This document shows, in pieces, positions 9,143-62,422 of a DNA stretch of 64,000 nt. The DNA is from Streptomyces dengpaensis (GTDB lineage Bacteria; Actinomycetota; Actinomycetes; Streptomycetales; Streptomycetaceae): the NCBI RefSeq assembly GCF_002946835.1, contig NZ_CP026652.1:4898001-4962000 (forward strand). Reading direction: 5' to 3'. The position numbers and the translations under genes were made by a program. Position 1 is the first letter of the stretch. Every line of letters begins with the position of its first letter. Under the pieces are notes generated by a model. The model worked only from the letters and a program-made list of their open reading frames with translations. It was not told where the DNA came from and ran no database searches.

Positions 9143-9568
9143 TCAGATCGACCCGAGGTCGGCCGACACCCAGCGCTCGGGCCGCATGCGGATGACCAGC
9201 TGCTCGCCGTGGTTCTTCAGAGCGAATTCGACATAACCCTCGACCTTCTCGGCCGGCACGTACCGGGCGGTGAGCTCCCGGAGCTTCTCGACGGTCGCGG
9301 GGGCGGAGTCGATCACCGGGCCCTCCACCGACACGTACCGGATGGTGGGTTCGATCCGGTCGACCATCAACGTGAACCGGCCCGCCTCGCTGATCAGCGC
9401 GTTCTTGCGGGACTCGAGTCCGGTCATGATCCAGATGTTGCCACCGGGCTCGTACTGGTACCAGATCGGCACGGTGAGCGGGGCCCTCCCCGCCCCGGAG
9501 TCCACCGCCAGCGCGGCGACATGCGGCTCGGCCAGAAACTGCTCGCGCTCTTCATGGGACAGTGCCAT
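9143..9568 (-). CDS. PPOX-class (possibly F420-dependent) small oxidoreductase
   Basis: 141 aa with GGAGGAG before ATG 9568. Single split-barrel domain: HEEREQFLAEPHVAALAVD, PLTVPIWYQYEPGGNIWIMT, KNALISEAGRFTLMVDR. Small proteins of this shape in actinobacteria often bind F420 rather than FMN (Rv1155-like) and reduce unsaturated carbonyls or bind haem products; cofactor use is inference. It stands 55 bp downstream of the thiolase-like gene on the same strand and may be co-transcribed with it, which would place it in the regulon. Confidence 0.8.
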   Translation of the reverse strand: MALSHEEREQFLAEPHVAALAVDSGAGRAPLTVPIWYQYEPGGNIWIMTGLESRKNALISEAGRFTLMVDRIEPTIRYVSVEGPVIDSAPATVEKLRELTARYVPAEKVEGYVEFALKNHGEQLVIRMRPERWVSADLGSI

Positions 9569-9623
9569 GTCATGCTCCTCCGAGTCGTTGCTGTCCTGAC
9601 GGAGAGCACCGGCCCGGGGGTCG

Positions 9624-10802
9624 TCATTCCCGTCCCAGTACCACCGTTCCCGAGGAACAGAACCACCCGCCCGTACCCGACACGACCGCCATTCGGGGCA
9701 CCTCCCCGCCCGCCCGCCGTATCTGCCGCCGCCCCGCCTCTCCCCGCAACTGACGTACGGCCTCGACGAGCAGGAACAGTCCCCGCATACCCGGATGCTG
9801 CGCCGACAGCCCGCCCCCGTCGGTGTTCACCGGCAGCTCGCCGCCCTCCACCCGCAGCCGCCCCTTCTCCACGAACGCGCCGCCCTCCCCCTTCCCGCAG
9901 AACCCGAGATCCTCCAGCGTCACCAGCGTCATGTACGTGAAGGCGTCGTAGATCTCCGCGAAGTCGATCTCCTCGGGGCGTACGCCCGCCCGCTCGAAGG
10001 CGAGCCGCCCGCTCACCGCCGCCGGGGACACCGTGAAGTCCGGCCATGCGGACATCGTCGTGTGCGAGACGTGCTCGCCGGTGCCGAGGATCCACACCGG
10101 GCTCGTACGGCAGTCGCGTACGTACTCCTCGGCCGCGAGCAGCACCGCCGCGCCGCCGTCGGAGCGTATGCAGCAGTGCAGTCTGGTGAAGGGGTCCGCG
10201 ATCATCGGGCCGTCCAGCACCTCGTCCACCGTGATCGGGTCCCGGAACATCGCCTCGGGATTCAGCGCCGCGTTCGCCCTCGCCTGGACCGCCACCTGCG
10301 CCAACTGCTCGATGGTTGTGCCGTGTTCGTGCATGTGGCGGCGGGCGGCCATCGCGTACTTGGCGATGAGCGTGTGACCGTACGGGACCTCGAACTGGAG
10401 GGGGCCCCGGGCGCCGAAGGAGAGATTGCCGGTGCGGCGGCCCGCCTTGATGTCCGCGCGGGCCGTGGAGCCGTACGCGAGGAGTACGGCGTTCGCGTGG
10501 CCCGCCGCGATCGCGTCGGCCGCGTGCGCCGCCATGACCTCCCAGGTGGAGCCGCCGACGGAGGTGGAGTCGACCCAGGTGGGGCGCAGCCCCAGGTACT
10601 CGGCCACCTCGATGGGCGCGAGCGTGCCGAGCCCCGCCGACGCGAAACCGTCGACGACCTCCCTGCCGAGCCCCGAGTCGGCCAGCGCCCGCCGGGCCGC
10701 CTGGGCGTGCAGCGCGTATGGGGTCGTGTCGTCCACGCGGCCGCAGTCGGAGAGGGATACGCCGACCACGGCGACCTTCCGGGTTCGGGTCCCTGATCCC
10801 AT
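9624..10802 (-). CDS. Thiolase-like protein (lipid-transfer/Ltp2 type)
   Basis: 392 aa. SCP2-thiolase-like fold: N-terminal VAVVGVSLSDCGR, the active-site helix region SVGGSTWEVMAAHAADAIAA (no Cys at the nucleophile position), IYDAFTYMTLVTLEDLGFCG with the conserved Tyr, and NTDGGGLSAQHPGM near the C-terminus. Loss of the Cys with retention of IYDAFT is typical of Ltp2-like retro-aldolases that pair with DUF35 proteins. The ATG at 10802 lies 4 bp from the palindrome 10807-10821, so the message may be leaderless or the start may be a downstream GTG. A partner is offered by the DUF35 gene at 7255. Confidence 0.83.
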   Translation of the reverse strand: MGSGTRTRKVAVVGVSLSDCGRVDDTTPYALHAQAARRALADSGLGREVVDGFASAGLGTLAPIEVAEYLGLRPTWVDSTSVGGSTWEVMAAHAADAIAAGHANAVLLAYGSTARADIKAGRRTGNLSFGARGPLQFEVPYGHTLIAKYAMAARRHMHEHGTTIEQLAQVAVQARANAALNPEAMFRDPITVDEVLDGPMIADPFTRLHCCIRSDGGAAVLLAAEEYVRDCRTSPVWILGTGEHVSHTTMSAWPDFTVSPAAVSGRLAFERAGVRPEEIDFAEIYDAFTYMTLVTLEDLGFCGKGEGGAFVEKGRLRVEGGELPVNTDGGGLSAQHPGMRGLFLLVEAVRQLRGEAGRRQIRRAGGEVPRMAVVSGTGGWFCSSGTVVLGRE

Positions 10803-10806
10803 GAAT

Positions 10807-10821
10807 CTGACGGTACATCAG
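10807..10821. promoter_or_regulatory. Regulon palindrome, copy 5
   Basis: CTGACGGTACATCAG, one mismatch, 4 bp upstream of the thiolase-like start codon on the minus strand. Confidence 0.78.
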
Positions 10822-10878
10822 ATGGTTCCTGTGCGGCAGGCGTCGCCCCTCTGGGCATCCCGGCCTTCCCGCCCTAAC

Positions 10879-10893
10879 ATGACGGCCCGTCAA
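10879..10893. promoter_or_regulatory. Regulon palindrome, copy 6
   Basis: ATGACGGCCCGTCAA: the inner TGACGNNNCGTCA core is perfect and the outer C/G pair is lost. 41 bp upstream of the acyl-CoA dehydrogenase, 72 bp centre-to-centre from copy 5 in the divergent promoter. Confidence 0.72.
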
Positions 10894-10934
10894 ATCCGGA
10901 GGGAAGTCCGGAGGGGAAGGCAGGGAAGGAAGCC

Positions 10935-12200
10935 ATGGACGCCAGCTTCACCGCCGAACAGGACGAGATCCGTCGTACCCTCCGTGAGCTCCTGCACAAG
11001 CGGTGCGGGGCGGAGGAGGTACGGGCCGCCGTCGCCGGTCCCGCCGGGCACGACCCCGCCCTGTGGGCCGCCCTCGCCGACCAGCTCGGTATGCCCGGGC
11101 TCGCCCTCCCGGAGGCGTACGGCGGCGTCGGCTGCTCGGTGACCGAACTCGCCCTCGCCGGTGAGGAGACGGGGCGGACTCTCGCTCCCTCGCCGCTCCT
11201 CGCGACCGCCGTCCTCGCCGCCCCGCTGCTGCTCGCCCTCGGTACCGAGGCGCAGCGCGCCGAGCTGCTGCCCCGGATCTCCTCCGGTGCCCTGACCGCC
11301 GCCCTCGCCGTACCCGGCGCCGGGCTCGCCACCGCGCTCGCCCTGACCGGCGACAACGGCGGCGACTGGGCGGGTGGCGGGCGCGCGGGCGGCGTACAGG
11401 CGAGGCGGGACGGCGCAGGCGGTGGGGGTGCGGGGAGCGGCGGGGACGGTCGTGGTCGTGCCGGCTGGCGGCTGTACGGGCAGGTCGACCAGGTCCTCGA
11501 CGGGCACAGTGCGGGGCTGCTCGTGGTCGCCGCCCACACCGGTGGCTTCGCCCGTTCCCGCACCCTGCTGTTCCTGGTGACGGGGGACGCCGCCGGGCTC
11601 GTCCGCGTACGGCAGACCGCCCTCGACGCCACCCGGCCGCAGGCGCGGCTTGAACTGCGGAACGTAGAAGCTGAGTTGCTCGGCGAGGACGGTGCGGACG
11701 GTGCGGACGGGGCGGGCCGTTCGGGCGGGACGGACGTGCTGGGCGCCCTCGCCGCCGTCGGGGACACGGCCGCCGCCGTGCTCGCCGCGGAAGCCGTGGG
11801 CGCCGCCGACCGCGCCCTGGAGCGGACGGTGGAGTACGTGCGGCAGCGCGAGCAGTTCGGCCGGGCGATCGGGTCCTTTCAGGCGGTCAAGCACCGGCTG
11901 GCGGACGTGTACGTGGCGGTGCAGGCGGCGCGCTCGGCCGCGTACTACGCGGCGTGGGCGACCGCGCACGGGGAGAAGGCGGGCGGACTCGCGCTCGCCC
12001 AGGCACTGGAGGCGCTCCGGACGGCTGCCGCCGAGGGCATCCAGCTGCACGGTGGCATCGGGTTCACCTGGGAACACGAGGCCCACCTGTACTTCAAGCG
12101 CGCCGCCGGCGACGAGCTGCTGTTCGGGCCGGTGCACCGGCTGCGGGCGCACGCGGCCCACATGGCGCGGCTCTTCGAGCAGAAGGAGGTGGCCGTCTGA
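10935..12200 (+). CDS. Acyl-CoA dehydrogenase family protein
   Basis: 421 aa. ACAD fold: N-terminal helices (FTAEQDEIRRTLRELLHKR), LALPEAYGGVGCSVTELALA, and C-terminal REQFGRAIGSFQAVKHRLAD and LHGGIGFTWEHEAHLYFKRA. That end motif is typical of the FadE subunits that form alpha2beta2 dehydrogenases on bulky CoA esters such as steroid side chains. A Gly-rich, low-complexity insertion of about 30 residues (near residues 150-185) replaces part of the middle beta domain and may disturb FAD contacts. Its stop overlaps the following F420-type gene. The palindrome upstream places it in the regulon. Confidence 0.85.
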   Translation: MDASFTAEQDEIRRTLRELLHKRCGAEEVRAAVAGPAGHDPALWAALADQLGMPGLALPEAYGGVGCSVTELALAGEETGRTLAPSPLLATAVLAAPLLLALGTEAQRAELLPRISSGALTAALAVPGAGLATALALTGDNGGDWAGGGRAGGVQARRDGAGGGGAGSGGDGRGRAGWRLYGQVDQVLDGHSAGLLVVAAHTGGFARSRTLLFLVTGDAAGLVRVRQTALDATRPQARLELRNVEAELLGEDGADGADGAGRSGGTDVLGALAAVGDTAAAVLAAEAVGAADRALERTVEYVRQREQFGRAIGSFQAVKHRLADVYVAVQAARSAAYYAAWATAHGEKAGGLALAQALEALRTAAAEGIQLHGGIGFTWEHEAHLYFKRAAGDELLFGPVHRLRAHAAHMARLFEQKEVAV

Positions 12201-47977: not shown

Positions 47978-50974
47978 GTGGCGGGCGAGTCCCCCGACAG
48001 GTCGAAGCAGCACGAGTCGTCGGCATCGGCGTCGTCGGCAGAACCGACGCCGGGGGCCCCGGCGTCGGTTCCGGGTCCGGCGCGCGGAGTCGCGTCGGCG
48101 TCGGTGTCGGCTTCGGCGTCCGCGTCGACCCCGGCTTCGGCTTCGGCCTCTGCTTCGGCCGACCCCCGTCTGGCGGTGGCCCGTGAGCGGGCGGCCGCGG
48201 TACGGGGGGATCAGGCCACGGCCGTGTTCTCCACGAAGGCCTTGACGGAGCCGGAGGCCGACGGGGCCTCGGACGCCGAAGAGAAGGGCACCGAGGGCGA
48301 CTCCCGGCTGCGTGCGGCCGTGGCCGCGTGGGTGGCGGGGTCGGGTGACGCCGCGGCGGCTGAAGGCGACGGCGGTTCCGGGGGCGGCTCGGGGGCTGCG
48401 GAGCGCGGCGCCGGGGCGGAGCCCGCGGACGCGGACGCGGACGCGGACGCCAACGCCAACGCCAACGCCAACGCCGACGCGGACGCCGACGACACCGGCG
48501 CGGACGCCGATGGTGGCGCGGACGGTGCTGCATCCGAGGCCGAGGAAGCCTCTGGCGAGGCGTCAGTTCGGGATGCGACGGCCGACGCGGACGCCGACGA
48601 CGCGCAGGACACCTCCGGTGAGGCTTCCGTCACCGATGAGCCCGGGGACGAGCCCGACGCCGAGAGCGCCTCCGGAGCCGACCCCAAGACGGAGGCGGAG
48701 ACCGGGACTGAGCCCGCGTCGGAGGACGGGCCCAAGTCCGGGGGCGGGAGCGCGTCCGTCGGCGCCGTCAGGGCCGGGGACGACAACACCGAGGCGGAGT
48801 CCGGGACGGAGTCCGGGACCGAGTCCGCGCCCGCACCCGCGTCGGAGGACGGGCCCAAGTCCGGGGGCGGGAGCGCGTCCGTCGGCGCCGTCAGGACCGG
48901 GGATGACAACACCGAGGCGGAGTCCGGGACCGAGTCCGGGACCGAGTCCGCACCCGCGTCGGAGAACGAGCCCAAGGCGGAGGCCGGGACCGAGGCCGGG
49001 ACCGAGTCCGCGCCCGTATCCGCCTCCGCCTCCGAGGACGCCCCCAAGCCCAAGCCGCGCGGCGCCACTTCGGACAACGACGCGGCCCCCAGCCCGAACG
49101 CCTCGGCGAAGAGCGCCCCGGAGGACTCCCCGAAGAGCCCCTCGGGCGGCTCCCCGAAGGCCACCTCCGCGGACTCCGAGCCCGTCGCCGCCGAACCCCA
49201 GGTCGACCAGCCCACCGCCGTCTTCAAGGCCGTACGCCCGCCCGCGGTGGACCAGCCCACCACCATGCTCAAGTTGGGCTCTGCCAAGCCGGGCGACAGG
49301 CAGGAGTCCAAGCGGGACGCGAAGCCGGAGTCCAAGGTGGACCAGCCCACCACCATGCTCAAGTTGGGCGCTGCCAAGCCCGGCGACAGGCAGGAGTCCA
49401 AGCGGGACGCGAAGCCGGAGTCCAAGCCGGACACCGATCCCGCCGCCGAGGGCACGAAGTCGAAGCCCGCCGGTGAAAGCGACTCCGAGCGCACCAGCAA
49501 ATTCGTGGCCCTCAAGCCGCTCGACGAGCCCAGGCGCCCGGCGGCAGGCCCGGCGTCCCAGGCGGGCGTGACGGGCCCGGCGTCCCCGGCGCTCACGCCC
49601 CCGGAGGCCGGCCGCGTCAGCCCCGCCGAGGCCACCACGGCCCTCCCGCAGATCGGTCCCGAGCGCACCACCCAGCAGCCGCTGCCGCCCAGGCCGCCGC
49701 TGGACCTCCTGGCCGAGCTGACGAACACGCCGCCGCCCCCGGAGACCCCGGTCCGCACGATCGTGCGGCGCGTCAAGATCTGGACCCCGCTGGTCGTCCT
49801 GCTGTTGATCATCGGTGCGATCGTGCAGGCTGTACGCCCGCTGCCGACCCCCACCCTCACGCTGACCGCCGAGGAGACGCACGCCTTCGAAGGCGACAAG
49901 GTCTCCCTGCCGTGGCCCGGCGAGGGCCAGGGCTGGATGGACGTGAACGGCATCGGCACGATGGACAGCTTCGGTGAGCAGGAGGCCGTGCCGATCGGCT
50001 CGGTCGCCAAGGCGATGACCGCGTACGTCGTCCTCAAGGACAAGCCCCTGAAGGCGGGCGAGGACGGCCCGTCGATCACCGTCGACGCCACCGCCGAGAA
50101 GGAGGGCGGCTACGACGCGGACGGCGAGTCCACGCTCAACACCGTCAAGGCGGGCTCCCAGATCTCGCAGCGGGACGCGCTCTCGGCCATCATGATCCCG
50201 TCCGCGAACAACATCGCGCGGCTGCTGGCCCGTTGGGACGCGAACGGGTCCGAGCAGGCCTTCGTCGACAAGATGAACGCCGCCGCGAAGGACCTCGGGA
50301 TGAAGAACACCACGTACACGGACCCGTCCGGTCTGAAGGAGACGACCGTCTCCACCGCCGAGGACCAGGTCAAACTGGGCAACGAACTGGTGAAGATGCA
50401 GGCCCTGATGGACATCACCAAGCTCCCGGAGTGGACCGACCCCTCCGGCAAGAAGTGGCGCAATTACAACACGCTCGTCCCGTTCGACAACGCGATCGGC
50501 ATCAAGACCGGCTCCACCACCAAGGCCGGCGGCAACCTGCTCTTCGCCGCCACCAAGGAGGTCGGCGGCGAGACCGTCACCGTCGTCGGCGCGGTCCTCG
50601 GCCAGCACACGGCGCCGATCATCGACACCGTCAACGCTGTCAGCAAGGAGGCGATGCTCGCCGCCCAGGACGCGCTGACCGCCGACACGATCCTGAAGAA
50701 GGGCGACGTCGTCGGCTACGTCGACGACGGCCTCGGCGGCCGTACTCCGGTCGTCGCCACCAAGGACGTCTCCGCGGTGGGCTGGGCCGGGCAGACGGTC
50801 AAGCTGCAGCTGGCGGACGGGGGTACGACCCTCCCGCATGAGGCGAAGGCCGGAACCGAGGTGGGCGTCCTCACGGTCGGAGACGGTACGGGCGACGCCG
50901 TCGAGGTCCCCGTCGCGCTCCAGTCGGACCTCATGGAACCGGGCTTCGGCAAGAAGCTGACGCGGCTGGGCTGA
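47978..50974 (+). CDS. Membrane-anchored D-alanyl-D-alanine carboxypeptidase (DacA/PBP5-like) with long repetitive N-terminus
   Basis: 998 aa from GTG 47978 (GGAGGAGG 5 bp upstream). Residues 1 to about 590 are low complexity: runs of SASA and DADADANANA, two copies of a segment of about 40 residues containing EDGPKSGGGSASVGAVR, and two copies of a unit containing DQPTTMLKLG and KPGDRQESKRDAKPES. One membrane span lies near 601-620, then the serine peptidase domain: GSVAK (Ser675, Lys678), SAN (742-744), KTG (843-845). The catalytic domain should sit outside the cell and trim peptidoglycan stem peptides, with the disordered tail in the cytoplasm. Repeated DQPTxxxK phrases are candidate kinase or adaptor sites (inference). 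Confidence 0.88.
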   Translation: MAGESPDRSKQHESSASASSAEPTPGAPASVPGPARGVASASVSASASASTPASASASASADPRLAVARERAAAVRGDQATAVFSTKALTEPEADGASDAEEKGTEGDSRLRAAVAAWVAGSGDAAAAEGDGGSGGGSGAAERGAGAEPADADADADANANANANADADADDTGADADGGADGAASEAEEASGEASVRDATADADADDAQDTSGEASVTDEPGDEPDAESASGADPKTEAETGTEPASEDGPKSGGGSASVGAVRAGDDNTEAESGTESGTESAPAPASEDGPKSGGGSASVGAVRTGDDNTEAESGTESGTESAPASENEPKAEAGTEAGTESAPVSASASEDAPKPKPRGATSDNDAAPSPNASAKSAPEDSPKSPSGGSPKATSADSEPVAAEPQVDQPTAVFKAVRPPAVDQPTTMLKLGSAKPGDRQESKRDAKPESKVDQPTTMLKLGAAKPGDRQESKRDAKPESKPDTDPAAEGTKSKPAGESDSERTSKFVALKPLDEPRRPAAGPASQAGVTGPASPALTPPEAGRVSPAEATTALPQIGPERTTQQPLPPRPPLDLLAELTNTPPPPETPVRTIVRRVKIWTPLVVLLLIIGAIVQAVRPLPTPTLTLTAEETHAFEGDKVSLPWPGEGQGWMDVNGIGTMDSFGEQEAVPIGSVAKAMTAYVVLKDKPLKAGEDGPSITVDATAEKEGGYDADGESTLNTVKAGSQISQRDALSAIMIPSANNIARLLARWDANGSEQAFVDKMNAAAKDLGMKNTTYTDPSGLKETTVSTAEDQVKLGNELVKMQALMDITKLPEWTDPSGKKWRNYNTLVPFDNAIGIKTGSTTKAGGNLLFAATKEVGGETVTVVGAVLGQHTAPIIDTVNAVSKEAMLAAQDALTADTILKKGDVVGYVDDGLGGRTPVVATKDVSAVGWAGQTVKLQLADGGTTLPHEAKAGTEVGVLTVGDGTGDAVEVPVALQSDLMEPGFGKKLTRLG

Positions 50975-53641: not shown

Positions 53642-54628
53642 TCAGGCCGCCTGGGGTGCGGTGGCCGGCTCCGGGGAGCCGAGGACGTCCTCGCCGTACA
53701 GGTCCCTCACCCAGTTGGTCTGGTAGATGGTCTCCAGATACCGCTCACCCAGATCCGGGGCGATGGCGACCGCGGTCAGCTTCCGTCCCTCCTGCCGGGC
53801 CAGCCAGTCCGCCGCGCCGCTGACCACCGTGCCGGTGGAGCCCCCGAACAGAAATCCACGCCTGGCCAACTGGTGACAGGCCCGGATGGTGTCGGCCTCC
53901 GTCACGCGCACCACATCGTCGACGTAGGACTCGTCCAGCAGCTGCGGCCGCCTGCTGGTGCCAAGGCCGGGAATCATCCGCCGGCCCGGGGCGCCCCCGA
54001 AGGTCACCGAGCCCACGCTGTCGACGGCCACGACGCGCACCGGCCGGTGCCACTCGCGGAAGTAGCGGGCGCAGCCCATCAGGGTCCCGGTGGTGCCCGC
54101 CCCGACGAACAGCACATCCAGGTCGGGGAACTGCCGGGCGATGGCAGGCGCGGTCCTGTGGAAGTGGGCCATGCCGTTGCTGGGGTTGGCGTACTGGTTG
54201 AGCCACAGATAGCGGTCGTCGGAAGCGCACAGCGCGCGGACGTGGTCGATGCGCGCGCCGAGGAAGCCGCCGACGGGGTCGGGCTCGGTGATGACGTGGA
54301 CCTGGCTGCCCAGGGCCTCCATCATCAGCCTGGTCGCCAGGTTGCAGCGGGAGTCGGTCACGCACAGGAACTGGTAGCCCTTGCTGGCCGCGATCATGCT
54401 CAGGGCCACGCCCAGGTTGCCCGAGGACGACTCGACGAGAACCGAGTCCGGCGTCAGCAGGCCGTCGCGTTCGGCGGCCTCGACCATTTCGGTGGCGGCC
54501 TTGAGTTTGATCGATCCGGCGAAATTGAAGCCCTCGCATTTGAGGAACAGCGGGTGCCCGATGATTCCCTCGAGGTCGACGTAGAGGTCGTCCTCGTTGA
54601 ATTCCTGGGGAACGGATATGACGGGCAT
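53642..54628 (-). CDS. sbnA: SbnA-like PLP enzyme for L-2,3-diaminopropionate synthesis
   Basis: 328 aa from ATG 54628 (GAGGAG 6 bp upstream). Cysteine-synthase fold: PLP lysine in FNFAGSIKLKAA (Lys41), ESSSGNLGVALSMIAASKG, GAGTTGTLMG (phosphate loop) and GGSTGTV. The whole length and DLEGIIGHPLFLKCEGFNFAG resemble SbnA, which couples O-phospho-L-serine and glutamate to N-(1-amino-1-carboxy-2-ethyl)-glutamate. The SbnB-type gene at 61352 would complete Dap formation, which makes the assignment much firmer than a cysteine synthase call. It is transcribed away from the synthetase genes across a repeat-rich promoter region. Confidence 0.87.
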   Translation of the reverse strand: MPVISVPQEFNEDDLYVDLEGIIGHPLFLKCEGFNFAGSIKLKAATEMVEAAERDGLLTPDSVLVESSSGNLGVALSMIAASKGYQFLCVTDSRCNLATRLMMEALGSQVHVITEPDPVGGFLGARIDHVRALCASDDRYLWLNQYANPSNGMAHFHRTAPAIARQFPDLDVLFVGAGTTGTLMGCARYFREWHRPVRVVAVDSVGSVTFGGAPGRRMIPGLGTSRRPQLLDESYVDDVVRVTEADTIRACHQLARRGFLFGGSTGTVVSGAADWLARQEGRKLTAVAIAPDLGERYLETIYQTNWVRDLYGEDVLGSPEPATAPQAA

Positions 54629-54784
54629 GGTTGTCTCCTCGACTGCGGCGGGGGTGTCTCCCGGCCGCTGTCCGTCTCGGCCGGGAAGATCTCGGCGGCG
54701 AGTGGGGGCTCGCCGGAACACCTCCAGTACGGCCGAATCTGTGCCGCCTTGTCATGCCACCGAAATTCGGGACTTGACACGCAC

Positions 54785-54834
54785 CCTGTTCGCGCTTTAA
54801 AGGCGGTCCACCTGTTCGCGCTTAAAGGGCGGTC
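54785..54834. promoter_or_regulatory. Pair of 24-bp direct repeats, candidate activator sites
   Basis: Near-identical copies at 54785-54808 and 54811-54834, 26 bp start to start, sharing the core CCTGTTCGCGCTT and GGCGGTC. The position between sbnA-like and synthetase genes suggests a regulator's binding sites. A TTGACA-like -35 precedes the first copy by 5 bp. Confidence 0.65.
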
Positions 54835-54881
54835 AGCGAAATTCCCGGGCGATTTCGATTTCCCGCAGATTGATCGGGTGT

Positions 54882-54917
54882 CTGTGATCCGCGGTCGTGC
54901 CTGTGATACGCGGTCGT
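54882..54917. promoter_or_regulatory. Pair of 17-bp direct repeats in the same promoter region
   Basis: CTGTGATCCGCGGTCGT (54882-54898) and CTGTGATACGCGGTCGT (54901-54917), one mismatch, 19 bp start to start. They are distinct from the pair upstream. Confidence 0.6.
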
Positions 54918-55120
54918 AAGCCGGGCGACGCGCACAGAAAGCAAGGGAAAGCGGGGCGGTGACCGGTAGAGCGGTCGGGCTATCAAGAGCGGCGTACCTC
55001 GTCAAGCCCCGAAATTCAGGGGCAGGACAGGTACTCCCCGGCTGGGCCTACTGGAGGGGCGGGCGTCACGAATCCGTCCGCACCGACCGACGCTTACCGA
55101 ACCGCCCTCAAGGAGCTCAC

Positions 55121-57730
55121 GTGTCAGCGAAAACTGTGGAGGTCTTGCATGCCGATCCGGCTGACGTCTCCACCCCCCAGGACGGCGGGGACGCCGGCCC
55201 GGCGACCGGCCCCCAGAGGCTTCTGGCCGAGGTGCTGGCCGGCGTCCTGCACGTCGAGCAGGTGCCGGCTGACGGTCACTTCTTCAACGACCTGGGCGCC
55301 GATTCCCTGGTCATGGCCCAGTTCTGCGCGCGGGTCAGGAAGCGGGCGGACCTGCCGACGGTGTCGATGAAGGACATCTACCGGCACTCCACCATCCGGA
55401 GCCTGGCCACCGCGCTCGCCGACGCCGCGCCCGTCCCGTCCCCGGCCCCGGTTGCGGAGGCGTCGGCACCGGCGCAGACGCCGACCGGCGTGGGGGCGTC
55501 GTCCGACGCGGCGGCAGCGGCCGGTACGCGGCGCTACATCGTCTGCGGAATGCTGCAATTCCTGTTCTTCCTGGTCCATTCCTGCCTCGCCGCTCTCGCC
55601 GGTGCGGCGGGGTACGAGTGGATCTCCGCGGGCTCGGGTCTGCTCGACGTCTACTTGCGGGCGGTCCTGTTCGCCGGCGCGGGCTTCGTGGCTCTGTGCA
55701 CGGTCCCGATCGTGGCGAAGTGGGCGCTCATCGGCCGCTGGCGATCCGGCGAGTTCCCCGTGTGGGGCATGGCCTATCTGCGTTTCTGGGTCGTCAAGAC
55801 CCTGATCCGGACCAGCCCGCTGCGCCTGTTCGCCGGTTCACCGCTCTACGTGCTCTATCTCAGGGCGCTCGGCGCGCGCATCGGCAAGGGCGTCACGATC
55901 CTCTCCCGCACGATCCCGGTCTGCACCGACCTGCTCACCATCGGGGAGGGCACGGTCATCCGCAACGACGTGTCCCTGTCCTGCTACCGCGCCCAGTCCG
56001 GCCTGATCCGGACGGGCCCGGTCACCCTCGGCAGCAACGTGCTCGTCAGTGAGCACACGGTCCTCGACATCGACACCGCGATGGGCGACGGCGCTCAGCT
56101 GGGCCACGCCTCCTCCCTGCACACCGGCCAGGTGGTGCCCGACGGCGAACCCTGGCACGGCTCGCCGGCGCAGCCCACCGAGGTGGACTACCGGACGGTC
56201 GGGCCCACCGGCTGCTCCACGGCCAGAAGGACCGGCTACTGCCTGGTGCAGCTCCTGATTCTGCTGACGGTGTATCTGCCCCTGGCGATGGTCGGCGTGA
56301 GCGTCCTCCTGGCCGGCGTCCCGCAGCTTCATGGGCTTCTGAACCAGCAGTCGGCCGCCCTCACCAGCCCGGCGTTCTACGCCGACGCTCTGGCCGTCTC
56401 CCTGACCGTCTTCTTCGGCTCCCTGCTCGCCGGCCTCCTGGTCGTGGGCACCGTGCCACGCGTCCTCAACCGGGCCATCAAGCCCGGCAAGGTCTATCCG
56501 CTGTACGGCTTCCACTACGGCATCCACCGGGCGATCGTGCTGCTGACCAACAGGAAGTCCTTCACCACGCTCTTCGGCGACAGCTCCGGCATCGTCCACT
56601 ACCTGCGCTACGTCGGGTACGACCTGTCCCGCGTCGAGCAGACCGGGTCGAACTTCGGCACCGAGGTGCGGCACGAGAACCCGTATCTGAGCTCGGTCGG
56701 CACCGGCACCATGATCGCCGACGGGCTGTCGGTCATGAACGCCGACTTCTCGAGCACGTCGTTCCGTGTGTCCCGTACGTCGATCGGGCCCCGCAACTTC
56801 CTCGGAAACCGCATCGCCTACCCCCCACAGGGCAAGACCGGTGACAACTGCCTGCTCGCGACGAAGGTCATGGTCCCCATCGACGGACCGGTGCGCGAAG
56901 GTGTGGGCCTGCTGGGCTCACCCAGCTTCGAGATCCCGCGCACGGTGATGCGTGACAACAAGTTCAGCCACCTGCAGACCGGCGACGAGCTGCGCCGCCG
57001 TCTGGCCGCCAAGAACAGGCACAACGCCGCGACCGCCGGCCTGTACCTGCTGGCGCGGCTGATCCACCTCTTCGTGATCACTCTCATCGCCATGGTCACA
57101 GTCGATCTCTACCCCTCGCTCGGCGCACCGGCGATCGCACTGGCCGGCCTTCTCACCCTCACGTTCACCGTCGTCTACTTCGCGCTGATCGAACGGGCCG
57201 CCGCCGGATTCAAGCCCCAGAAGCCGCTGTACTGCTCGATCTACGAGCCCTCCTTCTGGCGTCATGAACGCTTCTGGAAGATGGCCTCGGTCGACTACAT
57301 CCAGATCTTCGACGGCACCCCCTTCAAGAACGTGATCTGGCGGCTGATGGGGGCCCGGATCGGCAAGCGGGTCTTCGACGACGGCTGCTTCCTCCCGGAG
57401 CGCACCCTCGTCACCATCGGCGACGACAGCACGCTGAACGCCGGGACCGTGATCCAGTGCCACTCGCAGGAGGACGGCGCCTTCAAGTCCGACCGCAGCA
57501 CCCTCGGCAGCGGCTGCACCCTCGGGGTCGGCGCCTTCGTCCACTACGGCGTGACGATCGGCGACAGCGCCCTGCTCGCCCCCGACTCCTTCCTCATGAA
57601 GGGCGAGGAAATCCCCTCGCGCGCCCAGTGGGGAGGCAACCCGGCCCGCGACATGCCGGACAGCCAGACCCGTCTTGAGGCCCGCCAAGAACGCAACGCC
57701 GCCCACGCCGCCCCGGCACGCGGCAACTGA
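55121..57730 (+). CDS. Pls/PosA-like membrane synthetase half: carrier domain, six membrane helices, three tandem C-type domains
   Basis: 869 aa from GTG 55121 (AAGGAG 5 bp upstream). Carrier domain at about 30-100 with phosphopantetheine Ser62 in LGADSL. Then membrane pairs near 139-163/178-203, 375-399/420-446 and 640-662/668-690, with soluble domains between them (230-350, 455-630, 700-850). The soluble parts show hexapeptide-like turns (IGKGVTI, IGEGTVI, LGSGCTLGVGAFV). This is exactly the T-TM-C1-TM-C2-TM-C3 layout of the poly-epsilon-lysine synthetase family (NRPS terminal domain TIGR02353), but without its adenylation domain. The partner A domain is encoded by the next gene. Confidence 0.87.
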   Translation: MSAKTVEVLHADPADVSTPQDGGDAGPATGPQRLLAEVLAGVLHVEQVPADGHFFNDLGADSLVMAQFCARVRKRADLPTVSMKDIYRHSTIRSLATALADAAPVPSPAPVAEASAPAQTPTGVGASSDAAAAAGTRRYIVCGMLQFLFFLVHSCLAALAGAAGYEWISAGSGLLDVYLRAVLFAGAGFVALCTVPIVAKWALIGRWRSGEFPVWGMAYLRFWVVKTLIRTSPLRLFAGSPLYVLYLRALGARIGKGVTILSRTIPVCTDLLTIGEGTVIRNDVSLSCYRAQSGLIRTGPVTLGSNVLVSEHTVLDIDTAMGDGAQLGHASSLHTGQVVPDGEPWHGSPAQPTEVDYRTVGPTGCSTARRTGYCLVQLLILLTVYLPLAMVGVSVLLAGVPQLHGLLNQQSAALTSPAFYADALAVSLTVFFGSLLAGLLVVGTVPRVLNRAIKPGKVYPLYGFHYGIHRAIVLLTNRKSFTTLFGDSSGIVHYLRYVGYDLSRVEQTGSNFGTEVRHENPYLSSVGTGTMIADGLSVMNADFSSTSFRVSRTSIGPRNFLGNRIAYPPQGKTGDNCLLATKVMVPIDGPVREGVGLLGSPSFEIPRTVMRDNKFSHLQTGDELRRRLAAKNRHNAATAGLYLLARLIHLFVITLIAMVTVDLYPSLGAPAIALAGLLTLTFTVVYFALIERAAAGFKPQKPLYCSIYEPSFWRHERFWKMASVDYIQIFDGTPFKNVIWRLMGARIGKRVFDDGCFLPERTLVTIGDDSTLNAGTVIQCHSQEDGAFKSDRSTLGSGCTLGVGAFVHYGVTIGDSALLAPDSFLMKGEEIPSRAQWGGNPARDMPDSQTRLEARQERNAAHAAPARGN

Positions 57731-57766
57731 CCCCGCGACACCAGCAACAAGCAGAGGAATAGTCCG

Positions 57767-60280
57767 ATGGCAACGCATGTGAGTCGTACCCAGACCGGCC
57801 GGGAGTACTGGCGCGGCGTACTGACAGCCGGTGGTTTCACCCCCGCCCCGCGCTGGACCCTCCACCCGGTGACCGGCGAGGGGGAGTACGGGACACTGAT
57901 CCCCGACGCCACCGTGACCGGGCTGCGACGACTGGCGGGCGAGCTGGCGGTGCCGCTCAGTTCGCTCCTGCTGGCCGCGCACGCCAAGGTGCTCGCGGCA
58001 CTGTCCGGAGAGCGGGAGGTCACCACCGGGTACGTCGCCGAAGACGGCCGTCCACTGCCGTGCCGGCTCACGACCGCACCCGCCTCGTGGCGGGACCTGG
58101 TGCACAACGCCCACGAGGTCGCCGCGGACCTGCTGGCACACCAGGACATCCCGGCCGGTGGCATCGACGATCTGAGGCGCGAACTGGGCCTGACCGGGCC
58201 GTCGTTCGAGACCGTCCTCGATCCCACCGCGATCGACGGAGACCTCGCCGAGGACACAGCGCTGCGGGTGGGCATCGGTCACCACGACGGCCGTCTCGTC
58301 CTGCGGCTGCGCTACCGCACCGACGCGCTCGACGCCGACAGCGCCGCCCGCATCGCCGGTTATCACCTGACCGCGCTCGCGCTCATCACCGCCGACCCCG
58401 ACGCCGAACACGCACGCCAGAGCCTGCTGTCCGCCGACGAACTGCGGTTCCAGCTCGAGGAACTGGCCGGACCGGTCCGGGAGTTGCCCGACAGGCGGAT
58501 GCATCAGCTTTTCGAGGACCGGGTGCGGATCCATCCGGAGGCCGTCGCCGCCGTGCACGCCGGCCGGCAGTGGACGTACGGGGAGCTCAACGCCCGCGCG
58601 AACCGGCTGGCTCGCGCCCTGACAGCCCGCGGGCTTGCCCGCGAAGGCGTCGTCGCGGTGGTGACCGAACGCAACCTCGACTGGCTGGCCGCCGTCATCG
58701 CGGTCTTCAAAGCCGGAGGTGTCTACCTCCCCATCGAGCCGCACTTCCCGGCCGAACGCATCGCCGCCACCCTCTCCCGCGCCGCATGCACCCTGGTGCT
58801 GACCGAACCCGGCAGCACCGCCACCCTCGACCGGGCCGTCGACTCCCTGCCCGGAGTCGGCACACTCTTCGTCGGCACGGCCTACGAGGAAGGCCACGCC
58901 GACGACGATCTCGGCATCCACGTCACGCCCGACCAGCTCGCCTACCTCTACTTCACCTCCGGCTCCACCGGTGAGCCGAAGGGCGCGATGTGTGAACACG
59001 CCGGCATGCTCAACCACCTCTACGCCAAGATCGACGACCTCCAGGTCGGCGAGGGACAGGTGGTGGCCCAGACCGCGCCGCAGTGCTTCGACATCTCCCT
59101 GTGGCAGCTACTCTCCGCGCTGCTGGTCGGCGGGCGGACCCTGCTGGTCGAACAGGACGTCATCCTCGACGTACCCCGCTTCCTCGACACCATCGCGGAC
59201 GGCAGGGTCACCGTCCTGCAGGTCGTGCCCTCCTACCTCGAAGCCGTCGTGACCGAGCTCGAACAGCGCCCCCGCACGCTGCCCGGCCTGCGGTACGTGT
59301 CGGTCACCGGCGAGGCGCTGAAGAAGGAACTCGCCGAACGCTGGTTCACCGCCCAGCCCCGGATCCGGCTGGTCAACGCCTACGGGCTCACCGAGACCTC
59401 GGACGACACCAACCACGACGTCATGGACCGAGCACCGGACCGCATCCTGCTCGGCCACGCGGTCAACAACGTGCAGGTCTACGTCGTCGACGAACACCTC
59501 ACACCGGTGCCCCTGGGCGCCCCGGGCGTGATCGCGTTCTCCGGGGTCTGTGTCGGCCGCGGCTACATCAACGACCCCGAACGCACCCAAGCGACCTACC
59601 TGGCCGATCCGCACCGTGAGGGCGCGCGGCTCTACCTCGGCGGCGACTACGGCCGCTGGCACCCTTCGGGAAAGCTGGAGTTCCTCGGCCGCCGCGACGC
59701 CCAGGTCAAGATCCGCGGGTTCCGGATCGAGATCGGCGAGATCGAGAACACCCTGCTCCGCCACCCAGGCGTCCGCGACGGCGCGGTGGTGGTGGCCGAA
59801 CGCGCCGACCGGAGCAAGCACCTGGTCGCCTTCTACTCCGGCCCGGAACCCCTCGACACCGGGACCCTCACCGACCGGCTGGGTGCCTCGCTGCCCGCCT
59901 ACATGGTCCCGGCGGCCTTCCACTGGCGCGCAACCCTGCCGCTGACCGCCAACAGCAAGATCGACAAGAAGGTGCTGGTGGCGCTCGCCGCGGAGCTCGC
60001 CGCCACCGAGGACGGCCACGAGGCGCCGGCCACACCGGCCGAACGGCGGCTGGCGGCCGCCTGGGCGAAGGTCCTCGGCATCCCGCACGACCGGATCGGA
60101 CGCCGCGACCACTTCTTCGACTGCGGCGGCACCTCCCTCTCGGCGCTGAAGCTCGCCATCGCCCTGGACCGCACCGTGTCCCTCAAGGACATCACCGCAC
60201 ACCCCGTCCTCACCGACCTCGCCGCCCTGGCCGACAACGAACGCCGGCGCCACGCAACCGAACTACTGACCTCCTCCTGA
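57767..60280 (+). CDS. NRPS: C-domain remnant, adenylation, thiolation
   Basis: 837 aa. Residues 1 to about 230 match the C-terminal half of a condensation domain, with no HHxxxDG. The adenylation domain (about 245-720) has FTSGSTGEPKG (396-406), NAYGLTETS, GDYGRW and NSKIDKK. The thiolation domain has FFDCGGTSL (Ser790). No thioesterase. Residues read at the ten Stachelhaus positions are D-I-W-Q-S-T-A-D-D-K, aligned by eye. Two acidic pocket residues suit a short basic amino acid such as Dap. It should load Dap either onto its own T domain or onto the carrier of the membrane protein encoded upstream. 36 bp separate the genes. Confidence 0.88.
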   Translation: MATHVSRTQTGREYWRGVLTAGGFTPAPRWTLHPVTGEGEYGTLIPDATVTGLRRLAGELAVPLSSLLLAAHAKVLAALSGEREVTTGYVAEDGRPLPCRLTTAPASWRDLVHNAHEVAADLLAHQDIPAGGIDDLRRELGLTGPSFETVLDPTAIDGDLAEDTALRVGIGHHDGRLVLRLRYRTDALDADSAARIAGYHLTALALITADPDAEHARQSLLSADELRFQLEELAGPVRELPDRRMHQLFEDRVRIHPEAVAAVHAGRQWTYGELNARANRLARALTARGLAREGVVAVVTERNLDWLAAVIAVFKAGGVYLPIEPHFPAERIAATLSRAACTLVLTEPGSTATLDRAVDSLPGVGTLFVGTAYEEGHADDDLGIHVTPDQLAYLYFTSGSTGEPKGAMCEHAGMLNHLYAKIDDLQVGEGQVVAQTAPQCFDISLWQLLSALLVGGRTLLVEQDVILDVPRFLDTIADGRVTVLQVVPSYLEAVVTELEQRPRTLPGLRYVSVTGEALKKELAERWFTAQPRIRLVNAYGLTETSDDTNHDVMDRAPDRILLGHAVNNVQVYVVDEHLTPVPLGAPGVIAFSGVCVGRGYINDPERTQATYLADPHREGARLYLGGDYGRWHPSGKLEFLGRRDAQVKIRGFRIEIGEIENTLLRHPGVRDGAVVVAERADRSKHLVAFYSGPEPLDTGTLTDRLGASLPAYMVPAAFHWRATLPLTANSKIDKKVLVALAAELAATEDGHEAPATPAERRLAAAWAKVLGIPHDRIGRRDHFFDCGGTSLSALKLAIALDRTVSLKDITAHPVLTDLAALADNERRRHATELLTSS

Positions 60281-60337
60281 ACCACATCGAGACCTCCTCC
60301 TGAACCGCATCGAGACCTCCTCCTGAACCGCATCGAA
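60269..60337. repeat. 23-bp tandem repeat, three copies
   Basis: Units at 60269-60291, 60292-60314 and 60315-60337, each containing CCTCCTCCTGAACC. The first includes the NRPS stop codon. It fills the 70-bp gap before the dioxygenase gene and repeats a stop-proximal sequence, as a slippage duplication would. Confidence 0.85.
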
Positions 60338-60350
60338 AGGAAAGAGCACC

Positions 60351-61355
60351 ATGCCGTACCCGACCCCGGCGTCCCTCCTCCAGGTGGACCTGCACCCCGG
60401 CACACCCCCGATCCTGCACACCGACACCCCCGACGACGCGTCGGCCTGGGCGGCCGAGCACCACCACGCACTGCGCTCCCTCGTCACCGAACACGGCGCG
60501 GTCCTCGTCCGCGGCCTGCACCTGCGCGACGCGGACCACGCCGGCGCCGTCCTGCACCGGCTGGCCCCGGCACTGATGCCCGACAAGGAAGCCTTCGCCC
60601 CCCGCCAGAGCTACACCCCAGGCGTGTACTCCTCCTCGACATGGCCGCCGAACCAGCCGATGTGCATGCACCACGAACTCAGCTACACCCTCCAGCCGCC
60701 CGGTCTCATGCTGTTCGCCTGTCTGACCGCGCCCACCACCGGCGGAGCCACCGCCATCGCCGACGCCCCCAGCGTCCTGGAGGCATTGCCCACCGAGCTG
60801 GTCCACCGCTTCGAACAGGAAGGCTGGCTGCTCACCCGCACCTACAACGACGAGATCGGCGCCCCCTACGCCGAGGCCTTCGGCACCGACGACCGGAGGG
60901 CCATCGAGGATTACTGCCGCGCCAACGCGATCACGTTCGAGTGGCAGCCCGACGGCGGCCTGCGCACCCGCCAGCGCCGCCCCGCCGTGACGGCCCACCC
61001 GGTCACCGGCCGCCGCTGCTGGTTCAACCAGATCGCCTTCCTCAACGAGTGGACGGTCGAACCCGAAATCCGCGACTACCTCATCGACGTCTACGGCGCC
61101 GAGTCACTGCCGTTCAACACCCGCTTCGGAGGCGGCGACCCCATCGGCCCGGACGTCATCCAGCTCCTCAACGACACCTACACCGCCCACACTCTCCGCG
61201 AGCCGTGGCAGGCCGGCGACCTCATGCTCGTCGACAATGTGCGCACCGCGCACAGCAGGGAGGCCTTCCAAGGACCGCGCGAGGTACTCGTCGCCATGGC
61301 CGAGCCGCTACGCCCGGCCGAGTGCCTGCCGGCCTCCGAGGTGAGCGCCGGATGA
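60351..61355 (+). CDS. Fe(II)/2-oxoglutarate dioxygenase, TauD/SyrP-like
   Basis: 334 aa, AAAGG upstream of ATG 60351. Jelly-roll dioxygenase with the iron triad H107-x-E109 (in MHHELSY) and distal His301 (TAHSREAF); Arg310 can bind 2-oxoglutarate. An HxE rather than HxD triad with the ELSY phrase is typical of SyrP-like enzymes that hydroxylate carrier-bound amino acids at the beta carbon. Here that would give a hydroxylated Dap residue, or act on the polymer (inference). Its end overlaps the sbnB-like ATG by 4 bp, so it is translationally coupled to precursor supply. Confidence 0.86.
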   Translation: MPYPTPASLLQVDLHPGTPPILHTDTPDDASAWAAEHHHALRSLVTEHGAVLVRGLHLRDADHAGAVLHRLAPALMPDKEAFAPRQSYTPGVYSSSTWPPNQPMCMHHELSYTLQPPGLMLFACLTAPTTGGATAIADAPSVLEALPTELVHRFEQEGWLLTRTYNDEIGAPYAEAFGTDDRRAIEDYCRANAITFEWQPDGGLRTRQRRPAVTAHPVTGRRCWFNQIAFLNEWTVEPEIRDYLIDVYGAESLPFNTRFGGGDPIGPDVIQLLNDTYTAHTLREPWQAGDLMLVDNVRTAHSREAFQGPREVLVAMAEPLRPAECLPASEVSAG

Positions 61356-62422
61356 CCACCCACCCCTTGACCGCAATGGAGCCCGCCATGTCCCAGCCGC
61401 TCACCGTGCCACCGTTCGCGGTGATCTCCGGCGCCCAGGTCCAGCACGCCCTGCAGGGCCGGGAGAAGCAGGTCGTGGACCTCGTCGAGGCCACCTACCA
61501 CCTGCACGCCGCCGGAGAGTCGGTCAACCCGCCCTCCTACTTCCTGCGCTTCCCCGACCGCCCTTCCTCCCGCATCATCGCGCTGCCCGCCTCGATCGGC
61601 GGCCAGGTGCGGGTGGACGGCCTCAAATGGATCTCCAGTTTCCCCGACAACGTCCAGGCCGGCATCCCCAGGGCCTCCGCGGTCCTGATCCTCAACGACC
61701 ACGACACCGGCTACCCCTTCGCCTGCCTGGAAAGCTCCATCATCAGCGCCACCAGAACCGCCGCGTCCGCGGCACTGGCCGCCGGCCACCTCATCCGCGG
61801 CCGGCAACGCCCCACCCGCATCGGGTTCTTCGGCACGGGCCTGATCGCCCGCTACATCCACACCTTCCTGACCGCCGTGGGTTGGTCCTTCGACCAGACC
61901 GGCGTCCACGACCTGTCCCCCGAGAGCGCCGCCGGCTTCGGTGACTACCTTCAACAGAGCGACGCCGCCGGACAGATCACCGTGTACGACAGCCCCGAGG
62001 AACTCATCCGCTCCAGCGACCTCGTCGTCTTCGCCACCATCGCGGGCGAGCCACACATCAACGACCTGGCCTGGTTCGACCACAACCCCCTGGTCCTTCA
62101 TGTGTCCCTGCGCGACCTGGCACCCGAGATCATCCTCGGCTCGACCAACATCGTCGACGACGTCGAGCACTGCCTCAAAGCCAACACCTCTCCGCACCTG
62201 GCCGAACAGCTCACCGGCAACCGTGACTTCCTGCACGGCACACTTGCCGACGTCATGACCGGACGGGTGACACCCCCCACCGACCGGCCCCTCGTGTTCT
62301 CGCCCTTCGGCCTCGGAGTACTCGACCTCGCCGTCGGCAAATACGTCTACGACGAGACGGCCCGCTCCGGGCAACTCCACGTCATCGAGGACTTCTTCCA
62401 CGACCTGCGCCGCCACGGATGA
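61352..62422 (+). CDS. sbnB: SbnB-like dehydrogenase for L-2,3-diaminopropionate synthesis
   Basis: 356 aa from ATG 61352. Ornithine-cyclodeaminase/mu-crystallin fold: SRIIALPASIGG, DGLKWISSFPDN, ASAVLILNDHDTGYPFACLE, SATRTAASAALAA, and NAD site GFFGTGLIARYIH (158-170). These phrases follow SbnB closely. SbnB oxidatively hydrolyses the SbnA product to L-Dap and 2-oxoglutarate. The 2-oxoglutarate released is also the co-substrate of the coupled dioxygenase. Last gene of the synthetase operon. Confidence 0.88.
   Translation: MTTHPLTAMEPAMSQPLTVPPFAVISGAQVQHALQGREKQVVDLVEATYHLHAAGESVNPPSYFLRFPDRPSSRIIALPASIGGQVRVDGLKWISSFPDNVQAGIPRASAVLILNDHDTGYPFACLESSIISATRTAASAALAAGHLIRGRQRPTRIGFFGTGLIARYIHTFLTAVGWSFDQTGVHDLSPESAAGFGDYLQQSDAAGQITVYDSPEELIRSSDLVVFATIAGEPHINDLAWFDHNPLVLHVSLRDLAPEIILGSTNIVDDVEHCLKANTSPHLAEQLTGNRDFLHGTLADVMTGRVTPPTDRPLVFSPFGLGVLDLAVGKYVYDETARSGQLHVIEDFFHDLRRHG

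What the first reader, a model, noticed from the sequence alone, without database searches (positions are those of the whole stretch)
53642..62422. Split Pls-type synthetase cluster with its own diaminopropionate supply and a dioxygenase
Seen: SbnA- and SbnB-like genes flank a T-TM-C1-TM-C2-TM-C3 protein, a separate C-remnant/A/T protein and an Fe/2OG dioxygenase, with no thioesterase, no exporter and no further modules. Known: Pls-family enzymes (A-T-TM-C in one chain) make poly-epsilon-lysine, and poly-diaminopropionate is, as I recall, a Streptomyces product. Inference: the cluster makes a Dap homopolymer or short oligomer, perhaps hydroxylated, with the A domain moved to a second protein. 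That split plus a dioxygenase is not an arrangement I can match to a described system.
Basis: partly seen in the sequence, partly recalled or inferred. Interest (0 to 1): 0.92.

Follow-up and report, generated by a model that had tools for sequence, protein, structure and literature searches.

The report
Polylysine-synthetase relative fed in trans
A widespread Streptomyces gene cluster looks like a polylysine-type peptide polymerase that lost its own amino-acid-activating part and is now supplied by a separate enzyme set that makes, activates and probably oxidises diaminopropionate, which would give a new kind of modified cationic polymer if the prediction holds.

Summary
In detail: SbnA and SbnB homologues, a T-TM-C protein well above the Pls/PosA (TIGR02353) cut-off, a half-C-A-T protein and a TauD-type oxygenase lie in 53642-62422. 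The A domain was not moved: it belongs to the canonical NRPS lineage, and its pocket region best matches the diaminopropionate-bound A domain of sulfazecin synthetase. The T-TM-C protein descends from single-chain synthetases whose own A domain decayed; five Pseudonocardia loci still carry the dead domain beside the trans A-T gene. The pair is common: of 295 Streptomyces genomes 103 have split T-TM-C, all 103 also have A-T, and 115 of 129 T-TM-C genes have A-T directly downstream. A-T, TauD and SbnA/B also occur together without T-TM-C in other biosynthetic clusters, as a portable Dap cassette. Product, oxidation chemistry and hand-over are inferred. Ten literature searches of an open-access library found no description. 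New variant of a known kind.

The parts
53642..54628 (-). SbnA-like PLP enzyme, first step of L-Dap synthesis (alternative start 54721)
   Evidence: TIGR03945 392 bits over cut-off 350 (on the longer reading); start MPVISV as in relatives
54629..55120 (.). divergent promoter region; holds a direct repeat CCTGTTCGCGCTT at about 54785 and 54811
   Evidence: about 54897-55089 is 84-90% identical in L010, L012 and L090-L092
55121..57730 (+). T-TM-C1-C2-C3 protein (869 aa), Pls/PosA-type polymerase without an A domain
   Evidence: PP-binding 34-99, TIGR02353 141-842 at 797 bits, T-domain Ser62 in 102 of 112 rows with 10 gaps and no other letter, hydropathy peaks at 140-158, 181-199, 378-396, 424-442 and 643-661
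55220..55417 (+). T (carrier) domain of T-TM-C
   Evidence: PF00550 residues 34-99
55541..57646 (+). TIGR02353 membrane condensation region; residue Q783 at 57467-57469 marks the split clade
   Evidence: Q in 90 of 90 split, orphan and dead-A rows, L/M/F in 22 of 22 single-chain rows
57767..60280 (+). half-C-A-T protein (837 aa), canonical-NRPS-type Dap/Dab activating module
57767..58429 (+). C-terminal lobe only of a condensation domain, no HHxxxDG motif
58511..59959 (+). A domain, 10-residue code DIWQSTADDK
   Evidence: pocket region's best PDB match is 9n1u, the Dap-bound sulfazecin A3 domain
60047..60229 (+). T domain of the A-T protein (GGTSL)
   Evidence: PF00550 residues 761-821; motif
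60351..61355 (+). TauD-type Fe(II)/2OG oxygenase, HxE...H triad H107/E109/H301
   Evidence: PF02668 152 bits; H107, E109 and H301 in 43 of 43
61352..62422 (+). SbnB-like dehydrogenase, second step of L-Dap synthesis
   Evidence: TIGR03944 429 bits over cut-off 327

Best explanation
The locus encodes a two-enzyme version of a Pls/PDAP-type isopeptide synthetase with its own monomer supply. SbnA and SbnB make L-2,3-diaminopropionate (Dap) [family assignment shown, reaction inferred]. The half-C-A-T protein, a remnant NRPS module with no working C domain, activates Dap (or a close 2,3-diamino acid) and holds it as a thioester [family and pocket shown, substrate inferred]. The TauD enzyme oxidises Dap at this stage, before polymerisation [inferred, because TauD stays with A-T and SbnA/B also where no polymerase is nearby]. 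The aminoacyl group then reaches the T domain of the membrane T-TM-C protein in trans, by direct loading from the trans A domain or by transfer from A-T [inferred]. The C1-C3 region condenses it iteratively into a beta-linked (isopeptide) Dap or oxidised-Dap oligomer or polymer [by analogy with Pls, PDAP synthetase and PosA]. The T-TM-C protein arose from a single-chain A-T-TM-C synthetase whose A domain became redundant, decayed and was deleted [supported by intermediates].
For: Family scores. Dependence: 103 of 103 genomes with split T-TM-C have A-T, against 20 of 192 without it (Fisher p 1.4e-59); A-T is directly 3' on the same strand in 115 of 129, median gap 85 bp; the other 14 lie in genomes with A-T elsewhere (rows copied). 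All five genes in 30 of 32 loci. Trans A domain: code DIWQSTADDK in 35 of 37 fully read A-T proteins and in 16 of 16 further A-T proteins; the pocket region ranks the Dap-bound sulfazecin A3 (9n1u) first and PvdL A3 next; another possible precursor set (SbnA-like, argininosuccinate-lyase-like, ATP-grasp, GHMP kinase; typed for L158 only) sits with the same code. Separate origin of the trans A. Dead A domains in five loci, each beside an A-T, while none of 22 single-chain proteins has one within the fetched flanks. Condensing region kept: 134 of 167 split-invariant columns are at least 90% conserved in 21 single-chain proteins. Cassette without T-TM-C: 15 loci, TauD in 12. Precedent: CmnA-A1 loads Dap in trans on the A-less T-C protein CmnI (PMC12400406, passages).
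Against: No product is known. The Glu that the aligned Dap-bound and PvdL domains have at pocket position 4 is Gln here (read by eye), so the exact substrate could differ. Hydroxylation of free Dap at C-beta would give an unstable hemiaminal (chemical knowledge), so the oxidation may be a desaturation or act on a bound form. TauD matched only two PDB sequences, neither a close relative. No exporter or regulator is part of the conserved unit. Orphan T-TM-C copies (14 of 129) might do something else. Five loci pair T-TM-C and TauD with an unrelated A protein and free carrier. The branch that separates single-chain from split proteins has SH-aLRT 90 only.
Confidence: 0.62

Rival explanations
1. 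Plain Dap polymer: the cluster makes ordinary beta-poly-Dap (or the comb-like Dap-on-Dap polymer reported from Streptomyces), the two T domains serving as donor and acceptor; TauD acts on something else or is a minor tailoring step.
For: Single-chain PDAP synthetase is known from Streptomyces albulus (PMC4668381, parts 1-3 of 5 read), and a comb-like Dap polymer from a Streptomyces sp. (mention and reference title only, PMC9606270); SbnA/B and a Dap-type A domain are present; in the PDAP producer the Dap genes are not close to pdaps.
Against: TauD is present in 31 of 32 loci and stays with A-T in 12 of 15 loci without T-TM-C, which argues that oxidation is part of the monomer pathway. Single-chain PDAP synthetase already does the plain job.
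Confidence: 0.18
2. Short tailored peptide or ligation product: T-TM-C joins oxidised Dap to another amine (a lipid, sugar or small peptide) in the membrane and does not polymerise it.
For: Parts of the C1-C3 region match hexapeptide acyltransferases (published beta-helix model in PMC10522769, passages); A-T, TauD and SbnA/B occur in other NRPS and PKS-like clusters; Q783 differs from all 22 single-chain proteins compared.
Against: The TIGR02353 enzymes described in the passages I read (PMC10522769, PMC8117764, PMC4668381) make isopeptide homopolymers; no gene for a second building block is conserved in the unit.
Confidence: 0.14
3. Metal-chelating product (siderophore or zincophore), as SbnA/B would suggest from staphyloferrin B.
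For: SbnA/B homologues; genes that look by eye like metal transport genes near L007, L008 and L013.
Against: No good iron-box match (best 8-10 mismatches of 19) or Zur-box match (best 5-8 of 15) in the stretches scanned, with consensus strings recalled from memory; no siderophore synthetase, receptor or transporter among the families shared by many loci.
Confidence: 0.04

Closest known systems
beta-poly-L-diaminopropionic acid (PDAP) synthetase of Streptomyces albulus PD-1 (PMC4668381)
   Same: Dap monomer, SbnA/SbnB-like supply enzymes in the strain, TM-C1-C2-C3 region of the same kind
   Different: single chain with its own A domain, L-Dap genes not close to the synthetase gene, no oxygenase described in the parts read
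epsilon-poly-lysine synthetase (Pls), gamma-poly-diaminobutyrate synthetases, PosA (TIGR02353; PMC10522769, PMC8117764, passages)
   Same: TIGR02353 membrane region and T domain; 16 of 22 single-chain relatives here sit with genes that look like Dab aminotransferase or aspartokinase (by eye), as in gamma-PDAB loci
   Different: A domain in cis with D-x-E code (DFECLSVVTK in 21, DAESIGTVVK in 1 of 22); no trans A-T or TauD nearby; residue 783 is L/M/F, not Q
CmnA-A1 / CmnI of capreomycin (PMC12400406, passages)
   Same: an A domain for Dap loads an A-less T-C protein in trans
   Different: CmnI has a canonical C-domain fold and serves an ordinary NRPS line
SyrB1/SyrB2/SyrC tailoring of syringomycin (recalled; only the SyrC title was seen, in the reference list)
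   Same: A-T protein, Fe/2OG enzyme acting on the loaded residue, TE-like shuttle, A-less acceptor
   Different: chlorination of Thr; acceptor is an ordinary NRPS module; the TE-like part is missing in this copy
Sulfazecin synthetase A3 (PDB 9n1u) and PvdL A3
   Same: best solved matches of the A-domain pocket region
   Different: Glu instead of Gln at pocket position 4 (read by eye); the A-T protein here has only half a C domain

Membership tests
Pls/PosA family (TIGR02353) | TIGR02353 domain above the curated cut-off | tested here: met
   797 bits, cut-off 423
Pls/PosA family (TIGR02353) | carrier domain with phosphopantetheine Ser before the membrane region | tested here: met
   PP-binding 34-99; Ser62 in 102 of 112 rows, 10 gaps, no other letter
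Single-chain CHPA synthetase (A-T-TM-C in one protein) | A domain in the same chain | tested here: not met
   T-TM-C has 33 residues before the T domain; A is in another protein of another lineage
Single-chain CHPA synthetase (A-T-TM-C in one protein) | D at code position 1 and E at position 3 | tested here: not met
   trans A code DIWQSTADDK; rule from PMC10522769 passages
Single-chain CHPA synthetase (A-T-TM-C in one protein) | six TM helices around three soluble domains | tested here: inconclusive
   five separate hydropathy peaks; the structure job for T-TM-C was never accepted (last try)
Single-chain CHPA synthetase (A-T-TM-C in one protein) | product is a homopolymer with isopeptide bonds | not testable with these tools
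   needs product chemistry
SbnA / SbnB L-Dap synthase pair | TIGR03945 and TIGR03944 above cut-off, in one cluster | tested here: met
   392 and 429 bits; relatives of both in 30 of 32 loci
Dap/Dab-type adenylation domain | pocket of the Dap/Dab kind | tested here: met
   pocket region's best hits are 9n1u (Dap-bound, description) and PvdL A3; shares D, W, A, D, D of the code with both (by eye); Gln replaces Glu at position 4
Dap/Dab-type adenylation domain | measured activation of Dap | not testable with these tools
   needs an ATP-PPi assay
Fe(II)/2OG TauD-type oxygenase | PF02668 and HxD/E...H triad | tested here: met
   H107, E109, H301 in 43 of 43
Canonical NRPS elongation module | complete condensation domain with HHxxxDG | tested here: not met
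   only the C-terminal lobe is matched; no motif in the first 260 residues
Siderophore cluster of the staphyloferrin B kind | siderophore synthetases and iron-box control | tested here: inconclusive
   no synthetase seen among shared neighbour families (by eye) and no iron box, but the box strings were recalled and not calibrated

The most novel reading that the evidence does not exclude
A membrane isopeptide polymerase has swapped its built-in activation domain for a portable, oxidising NRPS cassette, so that it polymerises a tailored diamino acid (hydroxylated or dehydro-Dap). This would be a tailored homopoly(amino acid), which none of the papers I read from describes, and would show that TIGR02353 polymerases can be reprogrammed in trans by exchanging the loading protein.
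Probability: 0.42. Interest if true: 0.82.

Novelty: new variant of a known kind. Interest (0 to 1): 0.66.

Why it matters
About a third of the sampled Streptomyces genomes (103 of 295) carry the T-TM-C/A-T pair, yet ten literature searches (listed in the full report) gave nothing about its product. It offers three testable things: a polymerase of the Pls kind that can be studied with a separate, exchangeable loading protein; a probable source of oxidised cationic poly(amino acid)s, of interest as antimicrobials and cell-penetrating polymers; and a case in which the decay of a redundant NRPS domain can be followed through intermediates. It also gives a signature (A-T code DIWQSTADDK plus TauD plus SbnA/B) for finding the same building block in other peptide clusters.

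Tried and rejected
Rejected: relocation of the Pls A domain. Metal-regulated siderophore (a weak test with recalled strings). Solanimycin SolG as a guide: a sub-threshold NRPS hit, and its module is said to insert serine. Dehydroamino-acid and enamidonin literature as a lead for the TauD reaction: nothing decisive. Searching printed A-domain codes: no paper held the strings. A paper says that Dap sequences share 80% with Dab ones and that the code DVWQMIGDDK goes with beta-OH (PMC12283262, passages); its tables were not visible, so this is only a hint.

Led nowhere: an AlphaFold model of T-TM-C, because the machine was busy each time; the published beta-helix model for PosA (PMC10522769 passages) stands in. 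Foldseek 'pdb' search: busy. The VIA second look did run.

Results against my reading: dead-A proteins fall in at least two places of the T-TM-C tree, although four of their A domains form one clade (L044 was not put in), so one loss with later deletions or some re-fusion are both possible. L078 keeps a degraded A9-A10 region, so 'A9-A10 lost' holds for four of five, and the N-terminal half missing in L044 may be my gene caller's choice of start. In the A-domain tree one canonical row (L126, a very long branch) and the own Pls A domain (L006) fall outside both groups, and the variant A proteins join the A-T clade at 92. Five loci use another A (code DASVATMRSK) plus a free carrier protein with TauD and T-TM-C; one of them (L051) was labelled SPLIT_AT in the tree. 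Two genomes with single-chain synthetases (G150, G096) also have an A-T elsewhere.

Limits of counts: the genome search scored at most 3 candidates per genome; one search used rows I copied by hand, leaving out 5 single-chain rows, 3 fragments and 13 listed rows near 30% identity (and whatever one search did not list), but keeping 3 partial T-TM-C rows; the A-T set (E up to 1e-150) reaches down to 42% identity. One search used the 65 of 83 loci L006-L088 that are at least 18 kb, among them the near-identical pair L067/L068. In one search I set aside two remote family members (L011 at 6803, L077 at 2678), the five variant A proteins and the A-T proteins cut by locus ends. The tree used 96 of 112 aligned rows (16 of L099-L118 left out to save time). 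Gene starts come from my own simple gene caller. Names such as Dab aminotransferase, aspartokinase and MbtH for neighbours were read by eye unless a family search is cited.


Full report
What is there. The window is from a genome of 8.7 Mb (G000, window at C1:4898001-4962000); its nearest relatives are Streptomyces. Five genes lie in 53642-62422: SbnA-like on the minus strand and, on the plus strand and close enough for one operon, T-TM-C, half-C-A-T, TauD and SbnB-like. Gaps on the plus strand are 36 and 70 bases, and TauD and SbnB overlap by four. T-TM-C scores 797 bits against TIGR02353 (cut-off 423). SbnA and SbnB both pass the NCBIfam equivalog cut-offs for L-2,3-diaminopropionate synthesis. 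I see no thioesterase, transporter or second module in this copy.

How common it is. A scan of one genome per species gave 80 loci. Of the loci L006-L088 (three of them from the own genome), 65 are at least 18 kb long; 32 of these have an A-T at 60% identity or more, and 30 of the 32 have all five genes; one lacks SbnB, one SbnB and TauD. Full sets occur in Streptomyces, Pseudonocardia, Blastococcus, Geodermatophilus and the betaproteobacterium Pseudogulbenkiania, there with a more remote SbnA and SbnB. The same genome has a second full set at 7.83 Mb (L007), an orphan T-TM-C at 8.03 Mb (L008) and one single-chain synthetase at 6.98 Mb (L006) whose A-domain code, DAESIGTVVK, has Ala at the position that PMC10522769 ties to lysine.

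The two synthetase halves go together. In 295 Streptomyces genomes I took 129 split T-TM-C loci in 103 genomes and 149 A-T loci in 123 genomes. A-T lies directly 3' on the same strand in 115 of 129, median gap 85 bases. The other 14 are orphans, and each of their genomes has an A-T elsewhere. By genome: 103 with both, 0 with T-TM-C alone, 20 with A-T alone, 172 with neither, Fisher p 1.4e-59 (at most three candidates were scored per genome, I copied the rows by hand, and the genomes are related, so the p-value is only descriptive). This is what a loading enzyme that works in trans would produce.

Where the Pls-type A domain went. Five Pseudonocardia T-TM-C proteins still carry an N-terminal A domain of the single-chain kind. 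It is dead by sequence: the P-loop TSGSTGRPKG is broken in the four that still have it (L044, as called, lacks the N-terminal half), the A8 motif is broken in all five, and the part with the catalytic Lys is missing in four and degraded in the fifth. Each of the five has a trans A-T nearby, whereas none of 22 single-chain proteins does within the fetched flanks. On the T-TM-C tree the 22 single-chain proteins lie on one side of a branch (SH-aLRT 90) and split, orphan and dead-A proteins on the other; dead-A proteins occur in at least two places. One residue separates the sides without exception: position 783 is Gln in 90 of 90 split, orphan or dead-A rows and Leu, Met or Phe in 22 of 22 single-chain rows. 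Sixteen of the 22 single-chain genes have genes that look by eye like Dab aminotransferase or aspartokinase nearby (my count), as in gamma-poly-diaminobutyrate loci (PMC8117764 passages). So a Dab-type synthetase appears to have been converted to another diamino acid by adopting a trans loader, after which its own A domain decayed. The condensing region itself is kept: 134 of 167 columns invariant in split proteins are also at least 90% conserved in 21 single-chain ones. In 19 of 113 proteins there are two or three carrier-domain matches in a row, three of these with a partial one.

A portable cassette. A-T proteins not next to T-TM-C led to 16 further loci, chosen from 34 such A-T rows; one (L163) has T-TM-C after all. 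Of the other 15, 12 have TauD, 10 have SbnA and SbnB at 63% or more, and all 15 read DIWQSTADDK. Examples of company: a 2397-aa NRPS with two A, two MT and two T domains and one C (L149), an A-KR-T protein with a small MbtH-like gene (L151), ketosynthase-like genes with phosphoglycerate dehydrogenase (L150). TauD thus goes with the monomer, not with the polymerase, and this is why I place the oxidation on or before the A-T protein.

Mechanism. SbnA and SbnB make Dap, A-T activates it, TauD oxidises it, and the aminoacyl group is loaded or passed to the T domain of T-TM-C, whose C1-C3 region condenses it iteratively. Trans loading of Dap on an A-less T-C protein is shown for CmnI in capreomycin biosynthesis (PMC12400406 passages). 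SyrB1, SyrB2 and SyrC (recalled) are a precedent for A-T, Fe/2OG enzyme and shuttle. The fused TE-like domain of many A-T relatives (motif in 19 of 36 proteins; PF00975 in L007, and in many of the 120 listed homologues) could be such a shuttle or an editing enzyme; this copy lacks it, with 70 bases that contain short direct repeats before TauD. Shown: genes, families, linkage, pocket, decay of the A domain. Inferred: substrate, oxidation, hand-over, product.

Novelty. PDAP synthetase (PMC4668381, parts 1-3 of 5 read) is a single chain with SbnA/B-like genes elsewhere in the genome. The PosA paper (PMC10522769, passages) surveys 148 family members by their A-domain codes and models the C region as three beta-helices. 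A comb-like Dap polymer is known (mention and title only). My ten literature searches in an open-access library found no description of a split Pls-type cluster with SbnA/B and TauD; most subscription papers are not held, so this is not proof. The A-T and TauD homologues listed bear only generic names. In S. scabies an SbnB homologue near an sbnA gene and an NRPS gene was overproduced with potato tubers (PMC11479980 passage); whether it belongs to this cluster type was not checked.

Noticed in passing
L007 (G000:C1:7829000-7848000), 2640-11719: A second complete five-gene set in the same genome, 61-78% identical by tblastn, all on one strand in the order T-TM-C, A-T-TE, TauD, SbnB, SbnA.
   Followed up: yes
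L008 (G000:C1:8017000-8036000), 8907-11444: An orphan T-TM-C with no A domain nearby, among genes that look by eye like copper and cation transport; its upstream region shares the string TTCGAGTGGC with that of L007.
   Followed up: partly
L149-L162, L164: A-T with TauD, SbnB and SbnA (complete in 10 of these 15) in other NRPS and PKS-like clusters, a search handle for the same unknown building block.
   Followed up: partly
L158 10370-14087: Remote SbnA relative, argininosuccinate-lyase-like and ATP-grasp genes with a GHMP kinase beside the same A-domain code: a possible second route to a 2,3-diamino acid.
   Followed up: partly
L036, L039, L041, L051, L057: Variant: T-TM-C and TauD with a 528-531-aa A protein (code DASVATMRSK) and a free carrier protein of about 90 aa.
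   Followed up: partly
L057, L071 and 17 other T-TM-C proteins: Two or three carrier-domain matches in a row in front of the membrane region (three of the 19 with a partial one).
   Followed up: partly
window 60281-60350: Short direct repeats (about 23 bases, ACCGCATCGAGACCTCCTCCTGA) between A-T and TauD, where many relatives have the TE domain.
   Followed up: no
window 54785 and 54811: Direct repeat CCTGTTCGCGCTT in the divergent promoter region, not seen in the upstream stretches of 14 relatives compared.
   Followed up: partly
window 48224-50974: Very long Ala/Asp/Glu-rich repetitive stretch fused to what looks by eye like a D-alanyl-D-alanine carboxypeptidase domain.
   Followed up: no
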